Below, one piece after another: positions 2,974 to 40,478 of a stretch of 58,850 nucleotides of DNA. A model generated the notes under the pieces. The model was not told the DNA's origin. It saw only the letters and a program-made list of their open reading frames with translations, and ran no database searches. Position numbers and translations under genes: made by a program. Source of the stretch: an uncultured Lachnospiraceae bacterium (GTDB lineage Bacteria > Bacillota > Clostridia > Lachnospirales > Lachnospiraceae); assembly GCA_947588845.1 (NCBI GenBank), contig CANQAR010000009.1:1-58850 (forward strand). Direction: 5' to 3'. Position 1 is the stretch's first letter; every line of letters begins with the position of its first letter.

Positions 2974-3873
2974 ATGGAACAGAAAATGGAAATGTGGCTG
3001 CAGAAAGCCAATGTGCTGATCGAAGCGCTGCCTTATATCCGAAGATTTCACGGCAAGACGATCGTCGTAAAGTACGGCGGCAGCGCGATGGTCGACCATG
3101 AACTGAAAAAAAGTGTGATCCGCGATGTGGCGCTGCTGAAGCTGGTCGGTTTCCGTCCGATCATTGTTCACGGCGGCGGCAAGGAGATCACAAAATGGGT
3201 AAATAAAGTCGGCCTGGAGACAAATTTCATCAATGGTCTGCGTGTGACGGACAAGCCGACGATGGAAGTCGCGGAGATGGTGCTGAACAAAATCAACAAG
3301 GGTCTTGTCTCCATGATGGAAAAGACCGGCCTGAAAGCGGTCGGTATCAGCGGCAAGGATGGAACAGTTCTGCGCGTAAATAAAAGGATGCCCGGAGGCA
3401 AGGACATCGGATATGTGGGCGAGATAAAGGAAGTGAACACCCAGCTGCTCGACACGCTGCTTGACAATGATTTTATTCCGGTCATCTGTCCGATCGGCTC
3501 CGATGACAATTATCATTCCTTCAATATTAACGCGGACGACGCGGCCTGTGCAATCGCGACGGCTGTGAAGGCGTCAAAGCTGGCGTTTCTCACGGATATC
3601 GAGGGTGTATACCGGGATCCGCTGGACAAGTCCTCACTGATCAGCGAGCTGACGATCCCGGAGGCAGAGGAGTTTTTGAAGAGCGGAAATGTAGGGGGCG
3701 GCATGCTTCCGAAACTGCAGAACTGTATCGACGCGATCCGCTCCGGTGTTTCACGGGTGCATATTCTCGACGGGCGTATTGAGCACTGCCTGCTTCTGGA
3801 ATTCTTTACGGATAAAGGAATCGGGACGGCGATCATCGGGGAGAATGAGGAGCGGTATTATACCGGGAAGTGA
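2974..3873 (+). CDS. argB: Acetylglutamate kinase
   Basis: Phosphorylates N-acetylglutamate, the second step of arginine synthesis. The protein is 299 aa with the amino-acid-kinase fold: KYGGSAM with K33, HGGGKE from H66, GLRVTD, and GGMLPKL near the C terminus. The first about 25 residues form a helix-like extension before the kinase core. In known enzymes this feature marks hexameric kinases inhibited by arginine, so feedback inhibition is likely. The start at MEQKMEM follows an AGAAAGAG ribosome site. It may be translated from its own leader, given the repeats upstream. Confidence 0.96.
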
Positions 3874-3941
3874 ATTGCGGATATACCATGGTTTCCGAAA
3901 ATGCCGCAGGAGGCCCCGGGCATTGACGGCACTCATTTATA

Positions 3942-4080
3942 GGGAACGACAAAACGATTTTCGTTTTGCTCGTTCCCTGCGCCGAATTTGTGCCGCTCAA
4001 GCGGCATTTTCCGCTTCAAATTCGTGCGCATCCTCCGGAGGGCTTATAGTAAACGGCAAATATTTTTGTCGTTTGCTATA
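3942..4080 (+). repeat. Cluster of three inverted repeats between argB and argD
   Basis: The 255-base gap holds three dyads. The first pairs GGGAACGA-c-AAAACGA (3942-3957) with TCGTTTT-gc-TCGTTCCC (3961-3977). The second has an inner GCCGC-tcaa-GCGGC and an outer GAATTTG...CAAATTC at about 3984-4022. The third pairs TATAGTAAACG (4045-4055) with CGTTTGCTATA (4070-4080). None ends in a clear T-run. It may be a small palindromic mobile element or a processing site. Confidence 0.7.
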
Positions 4081-4128
4081 GAATTGGATGAAACAGAGCA
4101 CCATGATTTTTATCAGAAAGGAACAGTT

Positions 4129-5316
4129 ATGAACAGCAAACAATATATGGAACTGACCGAACAAAATGTTCTGCATACCTACAACCGTTTTCCGGTCGTG
4201 TTTGAGAAGGGAAGCGGCGTGTATCTTGAGGATGTGGACGGAAAAAAGTATCTGGATTTCGGAGCGGGGATTGCGGTGTTCGCGCTTGGATACGGAAATG
4301 AAACCTATAACAATGCGCTGAAAAATCAGATTGACAAGCTGATTCACACTTCAAATCTCTATTATAACACGACAATGCCGGAAGCGGCCGCGAAGATTGT
4401 AAAGGCCAGCGGAATGGATAAGGTGTTTTTCACGAACAGCGGCACGGAGTCGATCGAAGGCGCGATCAAGGCGGCGCGCAAGTATGCATATCTGCGCGAC
4501 GGGAAAGCGGACCATGAGATCATTGCGATGAATCATTCCTTCCATGGACGCAGCGTAGGGGCCTTGTCCGTCACCGGAAATCCGCACTATCAGGAGGCGT
4601 TCAAACCACTGATGGGCGGCGTGAAGTTTGCCGATTTCAATGATCTTGAGAGTGTGAAAGCTCAGATCACGGAAAAAACCTGCGCGATCATTCTTGAGCC
4701 GGTGCAGGGCGAGGGCGGCATCTACCCGGCGGAACCGGAATTTCTTCAGGGAGTGAAGAAGATCTGCGAGGAGAAAGATATCCTTCTGATCTTTGACGAG
4801 ATCCAGTGCGGCATGGGACGTACCGGAAGCTGGTTTGCGTGGCAGCAGTACGGCGTGGAGCCGGACATCATGACCTGCGCGAAGGCGCTCGGATGCGGCG
4901 TTCCGGTCGGCGCGTTCGTCCTGAACGAGAAGACAGCCAGGGCTTCCCTTGTGCCAGGAGATCACGGGACAACCTACGGCGGAAATCCCTTTGCCTGCGC
5001 CGCGGTTTCGGTGGTTTTTGATCTGTTTGAGTCTCAGAAAGTGATCGAGAATGTAAATAAAGTGGCGCCGTATCTTGAGAAAAAGCTTGACGAGCTGGTC
5101 GCAAAATATGACTGTCTTGCGGCGCGCCGGGGCAAAGGACTGATGCAGGGAGTTGTGGTCAGCGGCGTTCCGGTCGGCGGCATTGTCTCGAAAGCGCTTG
5201 AGAACGGACTGGTCGTCCTCAGCGCGGGAAGCGACGTTCTCCGCTTTGTTCCGCCGCTTGTCATCACGGAGGCGGATGTCGACGAGATGGTAAAACGTCT
5301 GGAACTGTCCTTATAA
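4129..5316 (+). CDS. argD: Acetylornithine aminotransferase
   Basis: A PLP-dependent class III aminotransferase that converts N-acetylglutamate semialdehyde to N-acetylornithine. The 395 aa are full length. The PLP lysine is K252 in TCAKALGCG. Other family signs are the [10 protein letters not shown] phosphate-binding stretch, the HGRSVGALS motif and [14 protein letters not shown]. The start at MNSKQYME follows GAAAGGAACAGTT. It closes the arg cluster; argF, argG and argH are not in the window. Confidence 0.95.
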
Positions 5317-5510
5317 GATTTTAAAAGAATATTTTCCTTTTTTCTGCATATACTTGTAATAGTCCGTATCTTTTGTGCATTGTTCGCCAAAGGTGAAGTC
5401 TGACCGGATAAAAATATGCGTTCTTTATGCTGTTTCGTCCGGTTCTGAATGAGTCCTGCCGGGCTGGAGCGCACAGGCTGCGGAACTACATGCAGAAGGG
5501 TGAATACATT

Positions 5511-5945
5511 ATGTTTGGAGTACTGATTGCGCTGTTGTCCGGCGCTCTGATGAGCGTGCAGGGAGTCTTTAATACGGAAGTGACAAAGCAGACGAGCCTC
5601 TGGGTATCGTCTGCTTTTGTGCAGTTTTCGGCTCTTCTGGTCTGCCTGGTCGTCTGGCTGGCGGCGGACCGGACGAGCTTTCTTTCCCTGGCCGATGTGC
5701 AGCACAAGTACATGCTGCTGGCAGGGGTGATCGGCGCTTTTATCACGGTCACGGTCGTCAGGAGCATGGATATGCTGGGACCTGCGCGGGCAGCCATGCT
5801 GATTGTCATTGCACAGCTGGGGGTTGCGTGGGGGATTGAACTTACCGGGCTGTTTGGCGTGGAAAAGACGCCGTTTGAGTGGAGAAAGCTGCTCGGCATG
5901 CTGATCGCAATCGCCGGAATTGTGATATTCAAGTGGAAGAAGTAA
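5511..5945 (+). CDS. DMT-superfamily YdcZ-type membrane protein
   Basis: A 144-aa hydrophobic protein with about four or five membrane segments and a short basic end (FKWKK). The N-terminal LIALLSGALMSVQGVFN, the middle TVVRSMDMLGPARAAM and the C-terminal GMLIAIAGIVIF fit the DUF606/YdcZ half-transporters of the drug/metabolite superfamily, which work as dimers. The substrate is unknown. The start follows AGAAGGGTGAATACATT. An upstream in-frame Met at 5427 is less likely because it lacks a ribosome site. It stands alone between argD and comEA. Confidence 0.85.
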   Translation: MFGVLIALLSGALMSVQGVFNTEVTKQTSLWVSSAFVQFSALLVCLVVWLAADRTSFLSLADVQHKYMLLAGVIGAFITVTVVRSMDMLGPARAAMLIVIAQLGVAWGIELTGLFGVEKTPFEWRKLLGMLIAIAGIVIFKWKK

Positions 5946-5953
5946 AAAAAATA

Positions 5954-5982
5954 TTGCAAAAATTTTAATTTATCGTTACAAT
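5954..5982 (+). promoter_or_regulatory. Promoter of the comEA-like gene
   Basis: A -35 TTGCAA at 5954-5959, 17 bases, and a -10 TACAAT at 5977-5982 lie just before the GTG start at 6005. Transcription would begin near 5989, giving a very short leader. Confidence 0.6.
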
Positions 5983-6004
5983 AGGAACATGTGCAGGGGG
6001 AACT

Positions 6005-7150
6005 GTGCCCACAGCGGCAGAAATGTACATGGATAATGGAAAGTATGTAAAATTCAGAGGTGAAATCTCAAGGGGTCATATGCAGGCGGACGGTGAGCTG
6101 TCACATGCAGGCAGATATCCGGTGAATACAGGGATAATCAAGGAAAACAGGAGGCACCTGTGCCTGTTTCCTGTGATCCCGCGCGGATTTCCGATACTGG
6201 CGCTGCTTCTGGCCGGAAGTATTTTTCTGACAGGATGTTCTGGTAAAGGTGCAGAGGACGCAGATTCCGGATGGAGTTTCCAGGCGGGGAGCGGCCAGGA
6301 GAAAGAAAATACGGGAAATAAAAAAGAAGATGATGGGGAAACGGCCGGGTTGTCCAATGCGGAGGACGGGGTCGTGCAGCCCGCAGCGGATGCTGTGGGG
6401 ACAGACAGTGCAGGCGCGGGGGGAACCGGGTCTGCAGGCGCAGAGAAGTCTTCCGGCGTTGAAAGTACAGCGGTAGATTCCTGGGCTTCAGATAGTGCAG
6501 GGGCTGCAGCAGATTTTAAGTTTTCAGGCAGCACAGGAACGGCAGATGTGGGAACTTCCGGTGGAACAGGAAGCGCGGACGGAAGCATGGTTTTGTCGGA
6601 CGGCGCAGCTGCAGTGGTATCCGGCGCTCAGGAGCCGGGGTATGTTTACATCTGCGGTGCGGTTCGCAGGCCGGGCGTCTATGAAATCGGAGAAGGCACG
6701 CGCGTTTTTGAGGTGATCGAACAGGCGGGAGGTCTCACGAAGCAGGCAGATGAAGAATGGCTGAATCAGGCGGAGGTTGTCTCTGACGGACAGAAGCTTC
6801 AGATCTATACAAAGAAGGAAACGGCGGCCTTTAAGGAGGCTGGTCTGTCGGCATCAGGCGATCCTGCAGTGACTGCGGGAGCGGGCGGCATGCCGCAGGG
6901 AGCGGATTTGCAGACGGCTGCCGGGGACGGCGCGGCAGCGCAGGGAGAGGCCGCGGACGAGAAAGTAAACATTAATACGGCGGACAAAGATCTGCTGATG
7001 ACCCTCCCCGGTATCGGGGAGTCGAAAGCGGAGGCGATCCTGCAGTACCGGCAGGATCATGGAAATTTTGGTTCGATCGGTGATATCTGCCAGGTTTCAG
7101 GGATCAAGGAAGCTGTATTTTCCAGAATAAAGGACAGGATTACAGTATAA
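6005..7150 (+). CDS. ComEA-like lipoprotein with SLBB and helix-hairpin-helix domains
   Basis: Probably binds incoming double-stranded DNA at the cell surface. A lipobox LTGC is at C78 counted from the GTG start. A long Ala/Gly/Ser-rich linker follows. An SLBB domain starts at GYVYICGAVRRPGVYE. The C terminus is a ComEA helix-hairpin-helix pair (VNINTADKDLL, LPGIGESKAEAI). GTG 6005 follows GGGGG. ATG 6080 follows AGGGG and would shorten the long N-terminal tail, so the start is uncertain. The linker is low in complexity and probably spans the wall. comEC lies 22 kb downstream, beyond an inserted block. Confidence 0.85.
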   Translation: MPTAAEMYMDNGKYVKFRGEISRGHMQADGELSHAGRYPVNTGIIKENRRHLCLFPVIPRGFPILALLLAGSIFLTGCSGKGAEDADSGWSFQAGSGQEKENTGNKKEDDGETAGLSNAEDGVVQPAADAVGTDSAGAGGTGSAGAEKSSGVESTAVDSWASDSAGAAADFKFSGSTGTADVGTSGGTGSADGSMVLSDGAAAVVSGAQEPGYVYICGAVRRPGVYEIGEGTRVFEVIEQAGGLTKQADEEWLNQAEVVSDGQKLQIYTKKETAAFKEAGLSASGDPAVTAGAGGMPQGADLQTAAGDGAAAQGEAADEKVNINTADKDLLMTLPGIGESKAEAILQYRQDHGNFGSIGDICQVSGIKEAVFSRIKDRITV

Positions 7151-9500: not shown

Positions 9501-10988
9501 ATGCTTGAAAAAATTATTGAACGCACGAATTTATATATAGACAATATGCCAAAAAAAGAGAGAAAAAAATATGGACAGTTTTTTACAAGTATGGAAACTG
9601 CAAAGTTTATGGCAAATTTGTATGAAATTCCGACCAATAAGAAAAGTGTAACGGTTTTGGACGCCGGGGCGGGTTCTGGCATATTGTCATGTGCTTTTAT
9701 TGAATGGATAGAGGGGTTTGACACAATAAAAGAAATAGAATTGACTTGTTATGAGAATGATGCTAATGTGTTGGGACTTTTAGAGGATAATTTAGAGTAT
9801 TGCAAAAATCATTCAAGTAAAATAGTTAAATATAATATTCAGACAGAGAATTATATTACAAGTCAATATTTAGATTTTAACTATATGATAGGTGGAAATC
9901 CTGATCCGATGAAATATGATTATGTAATTGGAAATCCACCTTATATGAAAATAGCGAAAGATGCGCCAGAGGCAGCAGCTATGCCGGAAGTTTGTTATGG
10001 TGCGCCGAATATGTACTTTATTTTTGCAGCTATGGGGCTTTTTAATTTAAAAGATGATGGGGAATTGGTTTATATTATTCCGCGTTCATGGACATCGGGA
10101 GCGTATTTCAAACGGTTTCGTCAGTATTTTCTGACAGAGGGAAAATTGGAACATATTCACTTATTTGTAAGTCGGAATAAAGTTTTTGACAAAGAAGATG
10201 TGTTACAGGAAACTATTATTATAAAAGTTCGGAAAACACATGTAAATCCGGCATGGGTAAAAATTACGTCATCGAAATCAAACAAAGATTTTGATGAATT
10301 AACTTTCTTGACCGCACCATATGATCTTATTGTGTCTGGTGAAGATTATTATGTGTATCTGGTAACAAATGATGAAGAAATAGCGGTATTGAAACAGTTG
10401 CATAAATTTAATAAAACATTGCCTGAAATTGGTGTGAAGATGAAAACGGGATTAACTGTAGATTTCAGAAATCGAAATATTCTTCGTGATAAAGAGGAGG
10501 AAGGCGCAATCCCCTTATTTTATTCGCAACACATAAAACAAGGCAGGGTGCAGTTTCCTATTCAGAAAGAAAATGAGTATGTAGTAACAGACCAGCGTGG
10601 GCTTATGCAGGATAATAAAAATTATTTGTTTGTAAAGAGATTTACAGCGAAGGAAGAACCACGGAGATTGCAATGCGGGATTTATTTGGCGAAGAATTAT
10701 CCACAGTATACGAAAATCAGTACACAGAATAAAATCAATTTTATTGATGGGCTTTTGGGAGAGATGTCAGAGTGCCTGGTATATGGCTTGTATGTGCTTT
10801 TTAACTCTACATTATATGATGAGTATTACCGAATTTTGAACGGCTCCACACAGGTAAACTCTACGGAGGTAAATTCTATGCCTGTGCCGGATATGGAGAG
10901 TATACAGGAAATGGGAAGAAAGTTAATGAAATCAAAAGATCTGTCGGAGAAAAACTGTAATTCGATTTTGGAGGGATACTGTGGGTAA
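9501..10988 (+). CDS. N6-adenine DNA methyltransferase of a type II system (BsuBI/PstI type)
   Basis: Protects host DNA by adenine methylation. The 495 aa contain the SAM-binding motif DAGAGSG at residues 54-60 and the catalytic NPPY at 145-148. The early KKYGQFFTSMETAKFMA stretch is typical of this gamma-type family, and a target-recognition region fills the C-terminal half. The adjacent nuclease is a BsuBI/PstI homologue, so the predicted target is CTGCAG. The gene overlaps the nuclease gene by 8 bases. It is strongly AT-rich, unlike the backbone, which indicates transfer. Confidence 0.88.
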   Translation: MLEKIIERTNLYIDNMPKKERKKYGQFFTSMETAKFMANLYEIPTNKKSVTVLDAGAGSGILSCAFIEWIEGFDTIKEIELTCYENDANVLGLLEDNLEYCKNHSSKIVKYNIQTENYITSQYLDFNYMIGGNPDPMKYDYVIGNPPYMKIAKDAPEAAAMPEVCYGAPNMYFIFAAMGLFNLKDDGELVYIIPRSWTSGAYFKRFRQYFLTEGKLEHIHLFVSRNKVFDKEDVLQETIIIKVRKTHVNPAWVKITSSKSNKDFDELTFLTAPYDLIVSGEDYYVYLVTNDEEIAVLKQLHKFNKTLPEIGVKMKTGLTVDFRNRNILRDKEEEGAIPLFYSQHIKQGRVQFPIQKENEYVVTDQRGLMQDNKNYLFVKRFTAKEEPRRLQCGIYLAKNYPQYTKISTQNKINFIDGLLGEMSECLVYGLYVLFNSTLYDEYYRILNGSTQVNSTEVNSMPVPDMESIQEMGRKLMKSKDLSEKNCNSILEGYCG

Positions 10989-11898
10989 AGTTGAAGAAGC
11001 ACGAGATTTTTTGAAGATGGTGGGGATGCCAAAAGCACAGCAGGCGGATATATGTTGTTATGTACTGTTGGCAATGGCAGATATGAAACCAGATATGTCA
11101 TGGGAGGAAGCAAGTAATGAGTGGATTCGTATCCATGACATCATTCAGTTTTCTAATGCTTTTTATGGGACTACTTATGCGGAAAACAGTAGGGAAACAT
11201 TTCGTAAGCAGGCGTTACATAGATTTCGAACCGCTGCTTTGGTGGAGGATAATGGAAAGGCAACAAACAGTCCAAATTATAGATACCGACTTACGGAAGA
11301 AACACTGAAAATGCTGAGAACATTTCAATCTGCAGAATGGCAGAAATCGTTGAAGCGTTTCCTTATGTACCATGATAAATTGATCGATATTTATGCTTCT
11401 AAAAAGAAAATGACAATGATGCCAGTGAAAATCAATGGGGCAGATTTTAAGTTTTCAGCAGGGAAACACAACGAACTGCAGAAAGCAATTATTGAAGAAT
11501 TTGCGCCGAGATTTGCACCAAATTCGGAATGCCTGTATGTCGGTGACACGACTGAAAAAGACTTGGTAAAGAACGTTGATAAGCTGACGGAATTGGGATT
11601 TGAAATTACTTTACATGATAAGATGCCAGATGTCGTTTTGTATCGGGCAGATAAGAACTGGATTTATTTTGTCGAATCGGTCACTTCTGTGGGGCCAATG
11701 GATCCGAAGCGTATTCTTGAAATAACAGAAATGACAAAGGGTGTTATGGCTGGAAAGATTTTTGTTACGGCTTTTTTGGATTTCAAGACATATAAGAAGT
11801 TTTCAGAAACATTGGCTTGGGAGACAGAAGTATGGATTGCTGAATTGCCGGAGCATATGATACATTTGAATGGAGATAAGTTTTTGGGGCCGAGATAG
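10981..11898 (+). CDS. BsuBI/PstI-family type II restriction endonuclease
   Basis: Cuts DNA that lacks the partner methylation. At 305 aa it has the family length. The catalytic half has GDTTEKDL from about residue 188, MPDVVLY with D217, then WIYFVESVTSVGPM, matching the known BsuBI/PstI arrangement (PD...E-x-V-T). The GTG start lies inside the methylase 3' end, so the two are translationally coupled. From characterised relatives the site is CTGCAG. That sequence still occurs in the host backbone, for example at 100-105, so protection depends on the methylase. Confidence 0.88.
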   Translation: MGKVEEARDFLKMVGMPKAQQADICCYVLLAMADMKPDMSWEEASNEWIRIHDIIQFSNAFYGTTYAENSRETFRKQALHRFRTAALVEDNGKATNSPNYRYRLTEETLKMLRTFQSAEWQKSLKRFLMYHDKLIDIYASKKKMTMMPVKINGADFKFSAGKHNELQKAIIEEFAPRFAPNSECLYVGDTTEKDLVKNVDKLTELGFEITLHDKMPDVVLYRADKNWIYFVESVTSVGPMDPKRILEITEMTKGVMAGKIFVTAFLDFKTYKKFSETLAWETEVWIAELPEHMIHLNGDKFLGPR

Positions 11899-13023: not shown

Positions 13024-13076
13024 AGAGATTGGAGAAATCAACGGTAACAGGATTACCACATACAAAGGAGGCCACT

Positions 13077-14210
13077 ATGTATAGAATACTAAAAATTGGA
13101 ATGGATGTCCATAGTACAAATTACACTTTATGCGCGATGGAGCCGGTAATCGGCGAAGAAGACCGCATATTTGCGACTATTAAGGTAACACCAGACTATA
13201 AAAACATCCTGATGTTCATTGAAAACCTGAAGCTGAAACCCGGTCTTAACAATCAGTATGACATCCAGTGCGGATACGAGGCGGGATGCCTGGGATATTC
13301 CCTGTATAATCAGCTGACAGCGGCGGGAGTGAAATGCGTGATCCTTGCCCCCACAACCATGCTGACACAGCAGGGAAAGAGGATCAAAACGGATGCGAGG
13401 GATGCCCGTATGATCGCCCAGTGTTTATCCTATGGCGGTTATCATGCGGTATATATCCCCACAGAAGAGGATGCGGCCGTTAAGGAATATCTCCGGATGC
13501 GGGATGACCACAAACTGGCGCTCAAGAAGGTGAAACAGCAGATCAACGCGTTCTGTCTGCGGCATGGATATTATTATGAAGGGACAAAATGGACCCTTGC
13601 GCACCTGAAATGGCTGAAGAAGCTGGAACTGAAAGAACTGTACCGGGAGACACTGGAAGAATATATGGCGTCTTATGAGGAGCAGACGGCAAAAATCGAA
13701 CGGTTCGATAAACGGATCGAAGAGATCGCCGCCCAGGAAAGGTACCAGGAGAAAGTAAAACGGCTGGGATGCTTCCTGGGGATCAGGACGCACACGGCGC
13801 TGTCCCTGGTTGTAGAGACAGGGGATTTTGAGAGATTTGCAAAAGGGAACACCTATGCGGCATATCTGGGACTTGTCCCGGGGGAACATTCCAGTTCTGA
13901 CAGTGTCAACCGTCTGGGGATCACGAAGGCTGGGAACGGCCATCTGAGGCAACTGCTGGCAGAGGCGGCAGGGAGCATCTGCAAAGGAGCGGTGGGCCAT
14001 AAATCAAAAGAACTGAGGGCGCGCCAGAATGGAAACACGGCGGAAGTGATCGCCTGTGCGGACAAAGCGAATACAAGGCTGCGGAGCAGGTATTACCGGC
14101 TGATACGGCACGGGAAGAAACGGAATGTAGCAGCAGCGGCGGTGGCAAGGGAGCTGGCATGTTTTGTATGGGGAATGATGACGGACAACATTGGGATCAA
14201 AGCGGCGTGA
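13077..14210 (+). CDS. IS110-family DEDD transposase
   Basis: A 377-aa recombinase that excises and inserts the element. The N-terminal RuvC-like DEDD domain has D10 (KIGMDVHS), E68 (GYEAG) and D106/D109 (KTDARDARM). A central coiled region follows. The C-terminal transposase_20 domain includes the YLGLVPGEHSSSDSVNRLG stretch and the serine-bearing region before LLAEAAGSIC. The start follows AAAGGAGGCCACT; a TTG 48 bases upstream is not needed. It appears intact. Enzymes of this family are guided by an RNA made from the element's noncoding end. Confidence 0.93.
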   Translation: MYRILKIGMDVHSTNYTLCAMEPVIGEEDRIFATIKVTPDYKNILMFIENLKLKPGLNNQYDIQCGYEAGCLGYSLYNQLTAAGVKCVILAPTTMLTQQGKRIKTDARDARMIAQCLSYGGYHAVYIPTEEDAAVKEYLRMRDDHKLALKKVKQQINAFCLRHGYYYEGTKWTLAHLKWLKKLELKELYRETLEEYMASYEEQTAKIERFDKRIEEIAAQERYQEKVKRLGCFLGIRTHTALSLVVETGDFERFAKGNTYAAYLGLVPGEHSSSDSVNRLGITKAGNGHLRQLLAEAAGSICKGAVGHKSKELRARQNGNTAEVIACADKANTRLRSRYYRLIRHGKKRNVAAAAVARELACFVWGMMTDNIGIKAA

Positions 14211-15136: not shown

Positions 15137-16963
15137 ATGGCTGAAGAATTTAATGTAAATAAAATAAGTGCTGAAGTAATTACTGATTTAGCAAAAAGTG
15201 CAGCAGGTTTTGTTGCAAAAAAAGTGGGTAAAATATATAAAGATACTATAAACAAAGAAGATATTGATTATAGAACCGCATTTGAGAAATATTTGTTTGA
15301 GGCAGAACGTCATATTAGTGTGGCGAAAACTATTTTATACGGTCAAACGCCACATTATTTGTATTCTTTTTTTGAATGCATGAGTATAAGAAATAGAGAA
15401 AATATAATTGATACTTCTGATGTGAATAATGTTTTGGATCTTGGGAATAAAATAATTATTACTGGAACCGGTGGAATTGGGAAAAGTATGTTGCTGAAAC
15501 ATTTTTTCCTGAATACAATAAGCATGACCAATTACATCCCCATATTAGTGGAATTGAGAGGGTTAAATGAGTATTTACCAGAAAATATTTCTATTGAGGA
15601 GTATATATATAATGTACTTCAAATATTTGGCTTTAAACTTGAAGAAGAGTATTATAAATATAGTTTGGAAACGGGGTGTTATTTAATTCTATTTGATGGT
15701 TATGATGAAGTTAAAAATTCAAATTCATCTAAGGTGACACAGGAAATCATTGATTTTAGTAACAAATATTCGGAAAATCATATTATTTTGTCCTCGAGAC
15801 CGTTGGATGAATTTGTTGGCTGGTCAGAATTTAAAGAGTATTCTTCAATTGCATTAAATAAAAATCAAGCATTATCGCTGATCTCTAAATTGGACTATGA
15901 TGCAGAAATAAAAAATAAGTTTTATAAGCAATTAGATGAAGAATTATTTGAAAAGTATGAATCTTTTGCTTCTAATCCTTTATTACTCACAATAATGTTG
16001 ATGACTTTTGAGGAACGGATTTCTATACCAGACAGTAAGACGGATTTCTATGAACAAGCTTTCTCGGCTTTATTTCATAAGCATGATGCTATGAAAAAAG
16101 GGAAATATAAAAGAGAGAAAACATCTGGACTAGGATACGAAGATTTTAAGAAGGTATTTTCATATTTTTGTTTTAGATCTTTTTTTAAAAACCAGTATGA
16201 ATTTACTGAAAAAAGTGCTTTAGAAAATATTGCGAAAGCTAAAGAAAAAGTATATTCTTATGGAGATTTTAAGGAAAGTGACTACTTGGATGATATGACT
16301 AAAGCAGTCTGCATGTTAGTACATGAGGGACTGAATTACCGCTTCTCGCATAGATCGTTTCAAGAATACTTTGCAGCCGTGTATTCTACTCAATTGAGTG
16401 ATGATGAGCAACGTCAGTTTCTTTCATCTTGGTTGAAATCTATGTCGGGTAGAATGACGACAGATTTTCTTGATATATTATGCGAACTTCAACCGGATCG
16501 ATTTATGAAAAATATTCTCTATAATCCAATGTGTGAGTTGTATGATTTATATAAGGCAAATGGTTGTTCTGAGGACTGGTTTATTGAGTATATGTATGCG
16601 GGCATTGTTATTTATTCTACTGCGAGTAGGGGCGAGAGAGTATTTGTTCAAGTTAAGCAATCATATTATCACACAATTTTTACAAGTATGTTGCATTATT
16701 TGCACTACAAATATGATGATACTGAAAGTGGGAAAGAATATGATAATATTGTTGGTCAGATAAAGGAAAAATATGAGGACAAAAGGTATATAAAGGGAAT
16801 ATCATTTGCACAACTTAAAAAGGATAATATATATGATAAAGTGAAATTAGTTATAAAATTTGTAAAGCAAAGGATGGACTATGTTTTTAATAAATTAGAC
16901 ACGATAGATATTAATACGTTTGGTAAAAAACGAAAATTTGAGTCTATGTTGGATGAACTATAA
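15137..16963 (+). CDS. NACHT-type STAND NTPase, candidate antiphage protein
   Basis: A 608-aa NTPase. A helical N-terminal region of about 105 aa precedes Walker A (GTGGIGKS, 110-117) and Walker B with acidic residues (LILFDGYDEV, about 183-192). A sensor-like SSRP follows. RFSHRSFQEYFAA at 402-414 is the hallmark found in NACHT and bacterial relatives. The last 190 aa are helical, without clear repeats, and may be the sensing or effector part. Bacterial NACHT proteins are known antiphage defence genes. No separate effector (nuclease, TIR, protease) is recognisable. The gene stands alone between direct repeats and is very AT-rich. The start follows GTCGAGGAAAAGTAT. Confidence 0.82.
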   Translation: MAEEFNVNKISAEVITDLAKSAAGFVAKKVGKIYKDTINKEDIDYRTAFEKYLFEAERHISVAKTILYGQTPHYLYSFFECMSIRNRENIIDTSDVNNVLDLGNKIIITGTGGIGKSMLLKHFFLNTISMTNYIPILVELRGLNEYLPENISIEEYIYNVLQIFGFKLEEEYYKYSLETGCYLILFDGYDEVKNSNSSKVTQEIIDFSNKYSENHIILSSRPLDEFVGWSEFKEYSSIALNKNQALSLISKLDYDAEIKNKFYKQLDEELFEKYESFASNPLLLTIMLMTFEERISIPDSKTDFYEQAFSALFHKHDAMKKGKYKREKTSGLGYEDFKKVFSYFCFRSFFKNQYEFTEKSALENIAKAKEKVYSYGDFKESDYLDDMTKAVCMLVHEGLNYRFSHRSFQEYFAAVYSTQLSDDEQRQFLSSWLKSMSGRMTTDFLDILCELQPDRFMKNILYNPMCELYDLYKANGCSEDWFIEYMYAGIVIYSTASRGERVFVQVKQSYYHTIFTSMLHYLHYKYDDTESGKEYDNIVGQIKEKYEDKRYIKGISFAQLKKDNIYDKVKLVIKFVKQRMDYVFNKLDTIDINTFGKKRKFESMLDEL

Positions 16964-17155: not shown

Positions 17156-17194
17156 GGGTGCGTGCTATAACTTTTTTGTTATCTGTTTACAAGT

Positions 17195-17320
17195 AAAAAG
17201 GCACTTGCCTAAGCAAATGCCTTTAATGTTTTGGCTAAAATATAGGCTCGATAGAGTCACTTTTGGTAAATACCAATGATACCACATCCCATGAGTATCT
17301 TGCGCCCTCAGAACCCTAGC
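17195..17320 (-). ncRNA. Probable structured RNA downstream of the DUF3800 gene
   Basis: A unit of about 120 bases with its own promoter and terminator and no ORF. A closing helix pairs TAGG-g-TTC near the 5' end with GAGCCTA. Inside are GATAC...GTATC, the hairpin TTGGT-attt-ACCAA and a possible TGAG...CTCA pairing. It ends in the terminator AAAGGCATTTGC-ttag-GCAAGTGCCTTT plus a T-run (17224 to 17195 on the minus strand). Several RNA motifs named after DUF3800 have been described from comparative genomics; whether this is one of them is not tested. Confidence 0.65.
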
Positions 17321-17326
17321 TCTATT

Positions 17327-17355
17327 ATAATACGCTTTAAAAGTCTTTTTGTCAA
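17327..17355 (-). promoter_or_regulatory. Strong minus-strand promoter of the structured RNA
   Basis: On the minus strand a perfect -35 TTGACA (17355-17350), a 17-base spacer and TATTAT (17332-17327), with TATAAT overlapping it three bases on. No coding sequence follows, so it should drive the noncoding RNA. It lies after the DUF3800 stop codon. Confidence 0.75.
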
Positions 17356-17392
17356 CTAGTAATTTTATAAAAATACGGGTAAATCTTGAAAG

Positions 17393-18184
17393 TCAATCTT
17401 TAGGAATGATTCTTATACCAAAACGATTTTTATTATTACATTTTCCATCATATGTTTTTCGATAAATATTCGCATTGAAGTTTTTAGTATTCGCATAAAT
17501 TTTTTTATTTATACTTTTTTTGGCTATTTGATTAGGAATAAAATCTGCTAGTTGTAAGCCGGCAATATTTTCCTGCTTGTTTGGGAAATCTATATTTCGT
17601 ATATATTTTTGAATAGAGTGTGAGTTTACGTACATTGTCCCGATAGCTTTTATTTGATGAAAGTGCTGACTCATAGCGATATTTTGGCTATTTTCTCTAG
17701 CCTCGTACTGGATATTGCCTATTGCCTGCTGATGATATAGAAAATGACAAAAATTCTCTATTATTATTTGCATGCAAATGGCACTGTAATCGTTGGAAAG
17801 ATTAGAAGGAAAATTATGTATAAGTTTTTCTTCGATTGCAACACAACCTAAAGTATGTACATCGCTGTTGCGAAGCACATAATCTAATTCTTTATAAAGA
17901 ATAGTACAATTATCGGAATTATTATAAAAGCGTATATATTCAGGTTTTACGTGAGATTTATCCACTCTACGTGATGTTGCGTCTTTTACTTCTTTCTCAT
18001 GTAAAATGATACTCTGGTAATTTTCTAAATCTGGCCATATTTTTTGCTTGACCTGATTGATTTGATGGCTAAGTACAGTATCATGGTATGTATTTTCCAC
18101 AATAATACCACCAATAGCGTAGGCATGTAAAGTTTGTTTTTGGTTTGTTTCACTTTCATCTAAATAAAGTGTATATGTTTTCAT
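17393..18184 (-). CDS. DUF3800-family protein
   Basis: A 263-aa protein with the family pattern: the N-terminal strand YTLYLDESE, whose acidic residues suggest an RNase H-like fold, GGIIVEN, and the C-terminal acidic AGLQLADFIPNQIA. DUF3800 proteins are common in mobile and defence regions and are suspected nucleases, but their function is not settled. The start follows GAAAGGGAAATT. The gene is AT-rich like the island beside it, although it lies just outside the proposed right border. The structured RNA is encoded directly downstream on the same strand, which suggests a two-part protein-RNA module. Confidence 0.85.
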   Translation of the reverse strand: MKTYTLYLDESETNQKQTLHAYAIGGIIVENTYHDTVLSHQINQVKQKIWPDLENYQSIILHEKEVKDATSRRVDKSHVKPEYIRFYNNSDNCTILYKELDYVLRNSDVHTLGCVAIEEKLIHNFPSNLSNDYSAICMQIIIENFCHFLYHQQAIGNIQYEARENSQNIAMSQHFHQIKAIGTMYVNSHSIQKYIRNIDFPNKQENIAGLQLADFIPNQIAKKSINKKIYANTKNFNANIYRKTYDGKCNNKNRFGIRIIPKD

Positions 18185-18355
18185 AATTTCCCTTTCGTTA
18201 AAAAGTTATACATGAACATCAGTACTTTGTTCCTAATATCTTAGTTTTGAGTTCAATTTGCACTATATCATATTTTAGCACAACCTAAATTATACAACAA
18301 TAGTAGTTTATCAAAAATAATAAATTTAACAAACAAATTATTGATAAAAATACTT

Positions 18356-39895: not shown

Positions 39896-40249
39896 CATGA
39901 GCAGGATAAATGGTCGCGGCTGGCAGGCCGAAAGGTGCCAGACGAGGAAAGTCCGGGCTTCACAGGGCAGGATGCCGGATAACGTCCGGTGGAGGCGACT
40001 CTAAGGAAAGTGCAACAGAAATGAACCGCCCGTGCCGCCTGTCGGCGCGGGTAAGGGTGGAAGGGCAGTGTAAGAGACTACCGCCTCCCCGGCAACGGGG
40101 AGGGCATATGTAAACCCCATCCGAAGCAAGGCCGCAAAGGAGCATATGGCTGCCCGTCAGCTTCAGGTAGGCCGCTTGAACCTGCCGGCGACGGCAGGTC
40201 TGGATAGATGACCATTCACGACATAACCCGGCTTATCGTCCTGCTCATG
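39896..40249 (+). ncRNA. rnpB: RNase P RNA, type A
   Basis: The catalytic RNA of RNase P, which trims tRNA 5' ends. The hallmark GAGGAAAGTCCGGGCT starts at 39942. The 5' end CATGAGCAGGATAA pairs with TTATC-gt-CCTGCTCATG at the 3' end to form P1. The conserved ACCCCATCCGAAGCAAG-like segment and AGATGACCATTCACGACA near the 3' end are present. The length of about 355 bases fits a bacterial type A RNA. The exact 3' end is a few bases uncertain. Confidence 0.95.
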
Positions 40250-40478
40250 TACAGTTCATGGTACCTGTCTTATCTGACCTTTCGGATCTGGCATCATCCT
40301 ATGGTTGGAATCCCCCCGGAAATTACAGCGAACGACAAAGCAGCAGCTGTTTTCTGTTAAAAAGATGCACACGGCCGCACAGGGAAGTCAGCTGTTGGCG
40401 CAGTTCGCGGCCGATGCAGAGCAAACGAATGAAATCTGTACAGAATATGGCATGGAGACTGTTCTGCAGGAGGTGAAT

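What the first reader, a model, noticed from the sequence alone, without database searches (positions are those of the whole stretch)
17195..18184. DUF3800 gene with a dedicated structured noncoding RNA downstream
On the minus strand a perfect TTGACA-17-TATTAT promoter drives about 120 bases with no ORF. They end in a strong stem plus T-run and fold around a closing helix TAGG-TTC/GAGCCTA with inner hairpins. It lies on the same strand just after a DUF3800 gene next to a defence island. RNA motifs associated with DUF3800 have been described, so a protein-RNA module, perhaps a toxin or defence unit, is plausible.
Basis: partly seen in the sequence, partly recalled or inferred. Interest (0 to 1): 0.78.

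Follow-up and report, generated by a model that had tools for sequence, protein, structure and literature searches.

The report
DUF3800 nuclease paired with private RNA
A nuclease-like gene in a bacterial defence hotspot is followed by its own separately promoted, structured RNA, and related genes in other bacteria and phages carry RNAs in the same place, which suggests a little-studied protein-RNA module, perhaps a toxin with an RNA antidote.

Summary
An 11-of-12 sigma-70 promoter lies 37 nt after the stop of a DUF3800 gene, before about 125 nt of RNA ending in a 12-pair terminator. It matches no Rfam family. The one relative from the genome-contig scan (47% protein identity, uncultured Clostridia) has the same RNA in the same place: local alignment z 5.0; 23 hand-set pairs all form in both, 5 changed on both sides. 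Of 26 non-redundant relatives, window included, 18 have a promoter of at least 10/12 within 38 nt of the stop, against 5 of 54 control ORFs within 60 nt. By inspection these 18 are followed by closed multibranch RNAs (9), hairpin arrays (6) or unclassified structured RNAs (3); RNA type follows the protein tree. Rfam's DUF3800-I and -XI, where found, lie upstream (6 of 6). The cassette sits in variable slots next to, or replaced by, restriction-modification genes. The protein model resembles type-2 RNase H (modest match). Best reading: nuclease plus dedicated RNA partner, most likely one that restrains it. Module well supported; antitoxin role inferred. Grouping the window RNA with other closed RNAs rests on inspection: a covariance model did not recover it.

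The parts
17393..18184 (-). DUF3800 gene, 263 aa; D9, E10, E143, E161, D214 invariant in the clade alignments
   Evidence: ORF; Pfam PF12686; alignments; AlphaFold2 model pLDDT 90.8; RNase HII best PDB fold match E 3.5e-3
18190..18195 (-). likely ribosome-binding site AAAGGG before the ATG
   Evidence: sequence read directly
17327..17355 (-). sigma-70 promoter TTGACA-17-TATTAT; -35 begins 37 nt after the DUF3800 stop
17193..17320 (-). noncoding RNA (start inferred from the -10 box; end from the terminator)
   Evidence: homologous RNA in L005
17315..17318 (-). P1 5' strand UAGG, pairs with 17246-17243; 2 of 4 pairs changed on both sides in L005
17243..17246 (-). P1 3' strand CCUA
17302..17307 (-). 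P2 5' strand GGGCGC (P2 is in the window fold, but not in L005's own minimum-energy fold)
17254..17260 (-). P2 3' strand GUGACUC with a bulged A kept in L005
17278..17299 (-). P3 hairpin GAUAC-CAU / GUG-GUAUC
17263..17276 (-). P4 hairpin UUGGU / ACCAA, much longer in L005
17197..17224 (-). intrinsic terminator, 12 pairs, presumably shared by the RNA and by read-through from the gene

Best explanation
This is a two-part protein-RNA module carried as cargo in a defence hotspot. The protein is a DUF3800 protein, probably a nuclease, with a fold closest to type-2 RNase H. The RNA is predicted to be a separate transcript from its own promoter placed right after the gene, and also the 3' end of the gene's mRNA because no terminator was seen between them. 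Shown by sequence: the layout, conservation with L005, the layout repeated in most of the clade, RNA architecture following the protein tree, exchangeable slots. Inferred: the RNA binds its own DUF3800 protein and, made in excess, keeps it inactive as an RNA antitoxin; phage infection or loss of the locus lowers the RNA and frees the nuclease. The inhibitory direction is the least certain step.
For: RNA with own promoter and terminator. Same RNA after the closest relative's gene: z 5.0, 0 of 500 shuffles; 23 of 23 hand-set pairs form in both, 5 changed on both sides, 5 on one side. Promoter of 10/12 or better within 38 nt of the stop in 18 of 26 clade loci versus 5 of 54 other ORFs within 60 nt. 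RNA labels cluster on the protein tree of 22 of the 26: 8 changes against a shuffled mean of 13.3, 0 of 200 as low. Invariant acidic residues; RNase HII is the top PDB fold match. Genes broken while promoter and RNA remain in L011, L026, L029. Slot exchange with R-M genes. Precedent: AbiF/RCd22, a phage-borne toxin neutralised by a structured RNA (PMC12373285, abstract and passages).
Against: No expression, binding or toxicity data. Broken genes with a surviving RNA could be chance, since the gene is about six times longer. Three relatives with open frames show no such promoter and no RNA that I recognised (L007, L025, L030), so some of these proteins seem to do without it. In type III systems the RNA precedes the toxin; here it follows. 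The window RNA body alone is not unusually stable, and L005's own minimum-energy fold has P1, P3 and P4 but not P2. L005's tested neighbour is a glycosidase gene, not a defence gene.
Confidence: 0.5

Rival explanations
1. The RNA is a cofactor or guide that the RNase H-fold protein needs in order to act, so that the pair is an RNA-directed nuclease rather than toxin and antidote.
For: RNase H-like fold. DUF3800 proteins are reported beside some Cas12a2 loci (PMC10910872, passages) and some VI-F and V-A2 CRISPR loci (PMC12669027, passage). The RNA has a constant core with variable parts such as P4.
Against: No stretch of the window RNA has a convincing match in the plasmid or phage collections: best hits E 1-2 over 25-29 nt. 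The variable parts compared are hairpins that keep pairing rather than free guides. Hairpin arrays with a repeated private motif look like protein-binding sites.
Confidence: 0.3
2. The RNA is an ordinary small RNA or 3' regulatory element that tunes the gene's own mRNA (stability, termination), without a partnership with the protein.
For: It lies in the mRNA 3' region with no terminator seen between gene and RNA promoter. Terminators after genes are common, and L007 has only that.
Against: A dedicated near-consensus promoter in 18 of 26 loci is not needed for that, and RNA architecture follows the protein tree.
Confidence: 0.15
3. No functional RNA: a chance promoter and a terminator with unconstrained sequence between.
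For: The body without terminator folds only slightly better than shuffles.
Against: Conservation with compensatory changes in L005 and the promoter recurrence.
Confidence: 0.04

Closest known systems
Rfam DUF3800-I (RF02969) and DUF3800-XI (RF02975) RNAs
   Same: Structured RNA beside a DUF3800 gene, same strand.
   Different: In the 6 loci where they were found they lie upstream of the gene; they do not match the window RNA, which lies downstream behind its own promoter.
AbiF with ncRNA RCd22 in a C. difficile prophage (type III-like)
   Same: Phage-borne toxic protein with one dedicated structured RNA, holding two hairpin motifs, that neutralises it (PMC12373285, abstract and passages).
   Different: Abi_2 family protein, not DUF3800; RNA is upstream and co-transcribed from one promoter, not downstream with its own.
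ToxIN, CptIN and other type III toxin-antitoxin systems
   Same: Endoribonuclease plus inhibitory RNA; repeats in the RNA recall the hairpin-array class.
   Different: Toxin fold and upstream position of the RNA repeats are recalled as different; inhibition is not shown here. Papers seen only as search listing with abstract starts.
DUF3800 accessories of class 2 CRISPR loci (TPR-DUF3800 with Cas12a2; VI-F and V-A2)
   Same: DUF3800 domain with RNase H fold next to RNA-based immunity (PMC10910872 and PMC12669027, passages).
   Different: No Cas family among the 8 proteins tested, the window protein included, though no CRISPR search was run; a DUF3800 protein without a TPR hit, with its own RNA.

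Membership tests
Pfam DUF3800 (PF12686) | Match over the curated cut-off of 21 bits | tested here: met
   43.9 bits, E 5.3e-11
Rfam DUF3800 RNA families | Covariance-model match over the gathering score | tested here: not met
   No DUF3800 family even at E up to 10 on 251 bases of the window or 221 bases of L005. Which of the published motifs are in Rfam was not established: I, IX and XI were seen
Rfam DUF3800 RNA families | Location relative to the gene | tested here: not met
   I and XI upstream in 6 of 6 loci; window RNA downstream. Other motifs' positions not seen
Type III toxin-antitoxin | Protein toxic when expressed alone | not testable with these tools
   needs an expression experiment
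Type III toxin-antitoxin | RNA binds and inhibits the protein | not testable with these tools
   needs co-purification and rescue
Type III toxin-antitoxin | RNA encoded just upstream, co-transcribed with the toxin (recalled; so in the AbiF paper) | tested here: not met
   RNA is downstream with its own promoter
Type-2 RNase H-like nuclease | RNase H2-like fold | tested here: inconclusive
   Top Foldseek hit RNase HII 1eke_B E 3.5e-3, prob 0.99, TM 0.38/0.43, rmsd 6.3; none at E 0.001 or better
Type-2 RNase H-like nuclease | Adjacent D-E near the N-terminus and further invariant acids (recalled) | tested here: inconclusive
   D9 E10 E161 D214 invariant in 5, 10 and 11 rows; geometry not measured, model coordinates were not in the Python box
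CRISPR-associated DUF3800 accessory | Neighbouring Cas12a2 or Cas13 and a CRISPR array | not tested
   The 8 proteins tested between 9.5 and 19.6 kb gave no Cas family; the rest of the window was not screened and no array search was run

The most novel reading that the evidence does not exclude
A broad family of mobile RNase H2-like nucleases, each encoded with a private, separately promoted RNA that co-diverges with its protein (closed multibranch RNAs in one branch, arrays of protein-binding hairpins in the other), forms a new kind of RNA-gated anti-phage or inter-phage exclusion system.
Probability: 0.35. Interest if true: 0.82.

Novelty: new variant of a known kind. Interest (0 to 1): 0.62.

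Why it matters
DUF3800 proteins have been linked with noncoding RNAs and with some CRISPR loci, but in the held papers that I searched and the passages that I read none gives them a tested function. This locus and its relatives supply small cassettes with defined gene, promoter, RNA and terminator, in which the simple question of whether the RNA restrains or enables the protein can be tested directly. The two RNA architectures tracking the protein tree give a natural specificity test by swapping partners.

Tried and rejected
Rfam at gathering scores: only RNase P in the window; in 19 of the 25 other clade loci nothing but tRNAs in L008. L028, L063, L067, L068, L069 and L073 were not scanned. 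At E up to 10 the RNAs of the window, L005, L024 and L027 gave only weak hits to unrelated families; the trpB-motif hit (E 0.3, 23.3 bits against a cut-off of 59) is taken as chance.

A covariance model built from L013, L024, L026 and L063 found those four again but not the RNAs of the window, L005, L006, L011 or L012. So one superfamily of closed RNAs is my reading of the shared P1 and core, not a demonstrated homology. Sequence alone supports three groups: W+L005; L006+L012; L013+L024+L026+L063. One pair across classes, L012-L015, scored z 4.7 and is unexplained. The P1 strand-swap test (p 3e-4) used registers chosen by eye and is weak support.

blastn of the RNA against plasmids and phages gave only chance-level hits. 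Single-protein scans of viral contigs with W, L005 and L024 found no relative, and L012 found only itself. RF02970 proved to be an unrelated family. For the window protein PADLOC gave only a hit of E 0.006, and NCBIfam and PHROGs none. The PDB sequence search gave one hit, E 0.43. Two genome searches around G712 and G721 (4 and 8 genomes) gave only the known loci.

Rows dropped before the promoter count: repeats of the same contig (L010, which equals L006 in this region, and L062, L064-L066, L070-L072), copies of the window (L002, L016, L045), L043 (same as L003), L031 (part of the L030 gene), L021 (contig ends soon after the gene fragment), L004 (weak hit inside a 1261-aa frame) and L074 (overlaps L041). 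L019, L020, L022 and L023 are distant DUF3800s counted apart (0 of 4 with 10/12 or better). Left out of the tree: L011, L026 and L029 (broken genes) and L069.

Full report
What is in the window. On the minus strand the DUF3800 gene (17393-18184, 263 aa; PF12686, E 5.3e-11) ends 37 nt before a TTGACA-17-TATTAT promoter (11 of 12). After it comes about 125 nt with no ORF of 80 aa or more, ending in a 12-pair terminator. The whole folds at -41.8 kcal/mol, z -3.3; the body without terminator has z only -1.5. No terminator was called between gene and RNA promoter, so the RNA should also be the 3' end of the gene's mRNA (inference).

Is the RNA real? The one relative that the GTDB contig scan returned, L005 (uncultured Clostridia, 47% protein identity), carries the same RNA in the same place. 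Local alignment of the two RNA bodies scores z 5.0, 0 of 500 shuffles as high. A hand-set model of four helices has 23 pairs; all form in both, 13 unchanged, 5 changed on one side, 5 on both. Helices P2 to P4 of that model are in the fold predicted from the window sequence alone; P1 was set by comparison. Against this, L005's own minimum-energy fold has P1, P3 and P4 but not P2.

How general is it? I collected relatives with single-protein, profile and tblastn searches: 3 of 391 class genomes, 8 of 398 phylum genomes, 8 of 397 family genomes, 4 of 391 class genomes with a larger profile, each count including the own genome and some weak hits; viral contigs, 6 loci and 10, partly the same; plasmids and phages. 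Of 26 non-redundant clade loci, window included, 18 have a promoter of 10/12 or better beginning within 38 nt of the stop; of 54 other ORFs of 150 aa or more in the same loci, 5 do within 60 nt and 6 within 100 nt. The eight without are L007, L015 (9/12), L017, L025, L028 (contig ends 79 nt after the stop), L030, L068 and L069. Four distant DUF3800s score 8 or less. The loci are related, so these are not independent events.

Two RNA architectures, by inspection. The window, L005, L006, L011, L012, L013, L024, L026 and L063 have one closed RNA: a P1 helix, a short core (such as AUUGGGA or UUCUGA on the 5' side, AUCGAA or AUCGAG on the 3' side; UAACUA in L006 and L012), then internal hairpins. 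L009, L015, L017, L018, L027 and L067-L069 have hairpins that repeat a motif private to the lineage, for example GGUGURACC in L027 and variants of AAAUGCGAAAGCUAC in L017; L003 and L029 have arrays with a less clear repeat. L008, L014 and L073 have structured RNAs that I could not class. Of 20 RNAs tested, 18 fold at z of -2 or lower; the window (-1.5) and L011 (-1.1) do not; spans of the non-closed RNAs were set by hand and may include terminators. For L013, L024, L026 and L063 the consensus fold has 25 pairs in P1 and terminator; 4 are changed on both sides in one sequence, 1 of them in P1. A covariance model from these four does not find the window RNA, so the link between closed-RNA groups is a reading. 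On a protein tree of 22 of the 26 loci the RNA labels need 8 changes against a shuffled mean of 13.3, 0 of 200 as low. The labels were given by eye before the tree, the split between the two sides has weak support (70/90), and L025 and L030, which lack the RNA, fall beside the window and L005.

Comparison with known DUF3800 RNAs. Among 245 class genomes 23 had PF12686. Of the 30 loci from that one search were scanned with Rfam: DUF3800-I appeared in two and DUF3800-XI in four, all upstream of the gene on the same strand. No clade locus scanned (the window and 19 others) matched a DUF3800 family. The paper that I recall as describing eleven DUF3800 motifs is not held, so identity with a motif that is not in Rfam cannot be excluded. 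Eleven held papers contain the word DUF3800, ten listed; in the passages read from four of them none gives it a tested function; the others were seen as listings only.

Surroundings. The window locus lies near a BsuBI/PstI-type R-M pair, an IS110 transposase and a NACHT-like protein. Of 47 same-genus genomes three match the PucR gene region: the own genome, G1199, whose contig ends soon after it, and G1206. In G1206 the R-M pair follows the PucR gene after about 140 nt, so the IS110, NACHT and DUF3800-RNA stretch is missing from that place. In a C. difficile phage-like plasmid (L006) the cassette lies in a stretch (about 3788-6411) that is under 200 nt in phage phiCDIF1296T and holds an Eco57I/MmeI-like gene in phage AR1086-1 and, by gene order, in LIBA6276; three of six matching phage records were looked at. 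AR1086-1 also has an orphan copy of the 5' part of the L006 RNA (90% over about 62 nt) whose P1 partner strand also follows; no promoter was evident by eye, and the tblastn searches of phages list no DUF3800 relative in that record. Among ten neighbouring proteins tested at eight loci are portal, terminase and antirepressor genes, but also glycosidase and cell-wall-binding genes, so the setting is not always defence-like.

Protein. The AlphaFold2 model is confident (pLDDT 90.8). RNase HII and RNase H2 lead the PDB matches at modest scores; a phage DUF3800 protein is the best viral match, E 1.7e-18. D9, E10, E161 and D214 are invariant in the clade alignments; that an adjacent D-E pair is typical of type-2 RNase H is recalled. 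An RNase H fold for DUF3800 agrees with PMC10910872 and PMC12669027 (passages).

How it probably works. Shown by sequence: a conserved RNA with its own promoter and terminator, tied to one clade of DUF3800 genes and carried with them on mobile or variable DNA. Inferred: the RNA is the protein's partner. I favour restraint (RNA antitoxin), because the RNA has a strong, independent promoter, because repeated hairpins suit protein binding, and because the gene is broken while promoter and RNA remain in three loci; none of these is decisive. A required cofactor is the main rival. The AbiF/RCd22 case (PMC12373285, abstract and passages) shows that such pairs exist in phages, though with another protein family and the opposite gene order.

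Noticed in passing
L038 and L046, just after their DUF3800 genes: Another apparent downstream RNA, not matched by Rfam at gathering scores, with a unit AACAGUAAGUCC...GGCAAUU; two copies visible in L046, one behind TTGACT-17-TATACT (read by eye).
   Followed up: no
L202 4281-4372 (phage AR1086-1): Orphan copy of the L006-type RNA with P1 pairing kept, but no DUF3800 relative found in the record and no evident promoter; followed by a gene with a partial Bro-N domain.
   Followed up: partly
L025 and L030: DUF3800 proteins that branch beside the window and L005 in the tree, have C-terminal extensions and no recognised promoter-RNA downstream: possible loss of RNA dependence.
   Followed up: partly
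window 15137-16963 (+): NACHT-like protein with a SNaCT7 C-terminal domain, convergent with the DUF3800-RNA cassette.
   Followed up: partly
window 9501-11898 (+): BsuBI/PstI-type restriction-modification pair in the same variable region; in G1206 it sits directly beside the PucR gene.
   Followed up: yes
window 13029-14210 (+): IS110-family transposase gene inside the island; a bridge RNA was not looked for.
   Followed up: no
window 39898-40251 (+): RNase P RNA (class A), the only Rfam match in the window at gathering scores.
   Followed up: no
L200 3237-6659 (-): Gene of 1140 aa with a WG-repeat match, next to the R-M pair in the same-genus genome G1206.
   Followed up: no
L012 and L015 RNAs: Local sequence similarity z 4.7 between RNAs of different architecture classes; unexplained.
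   Followed up: no
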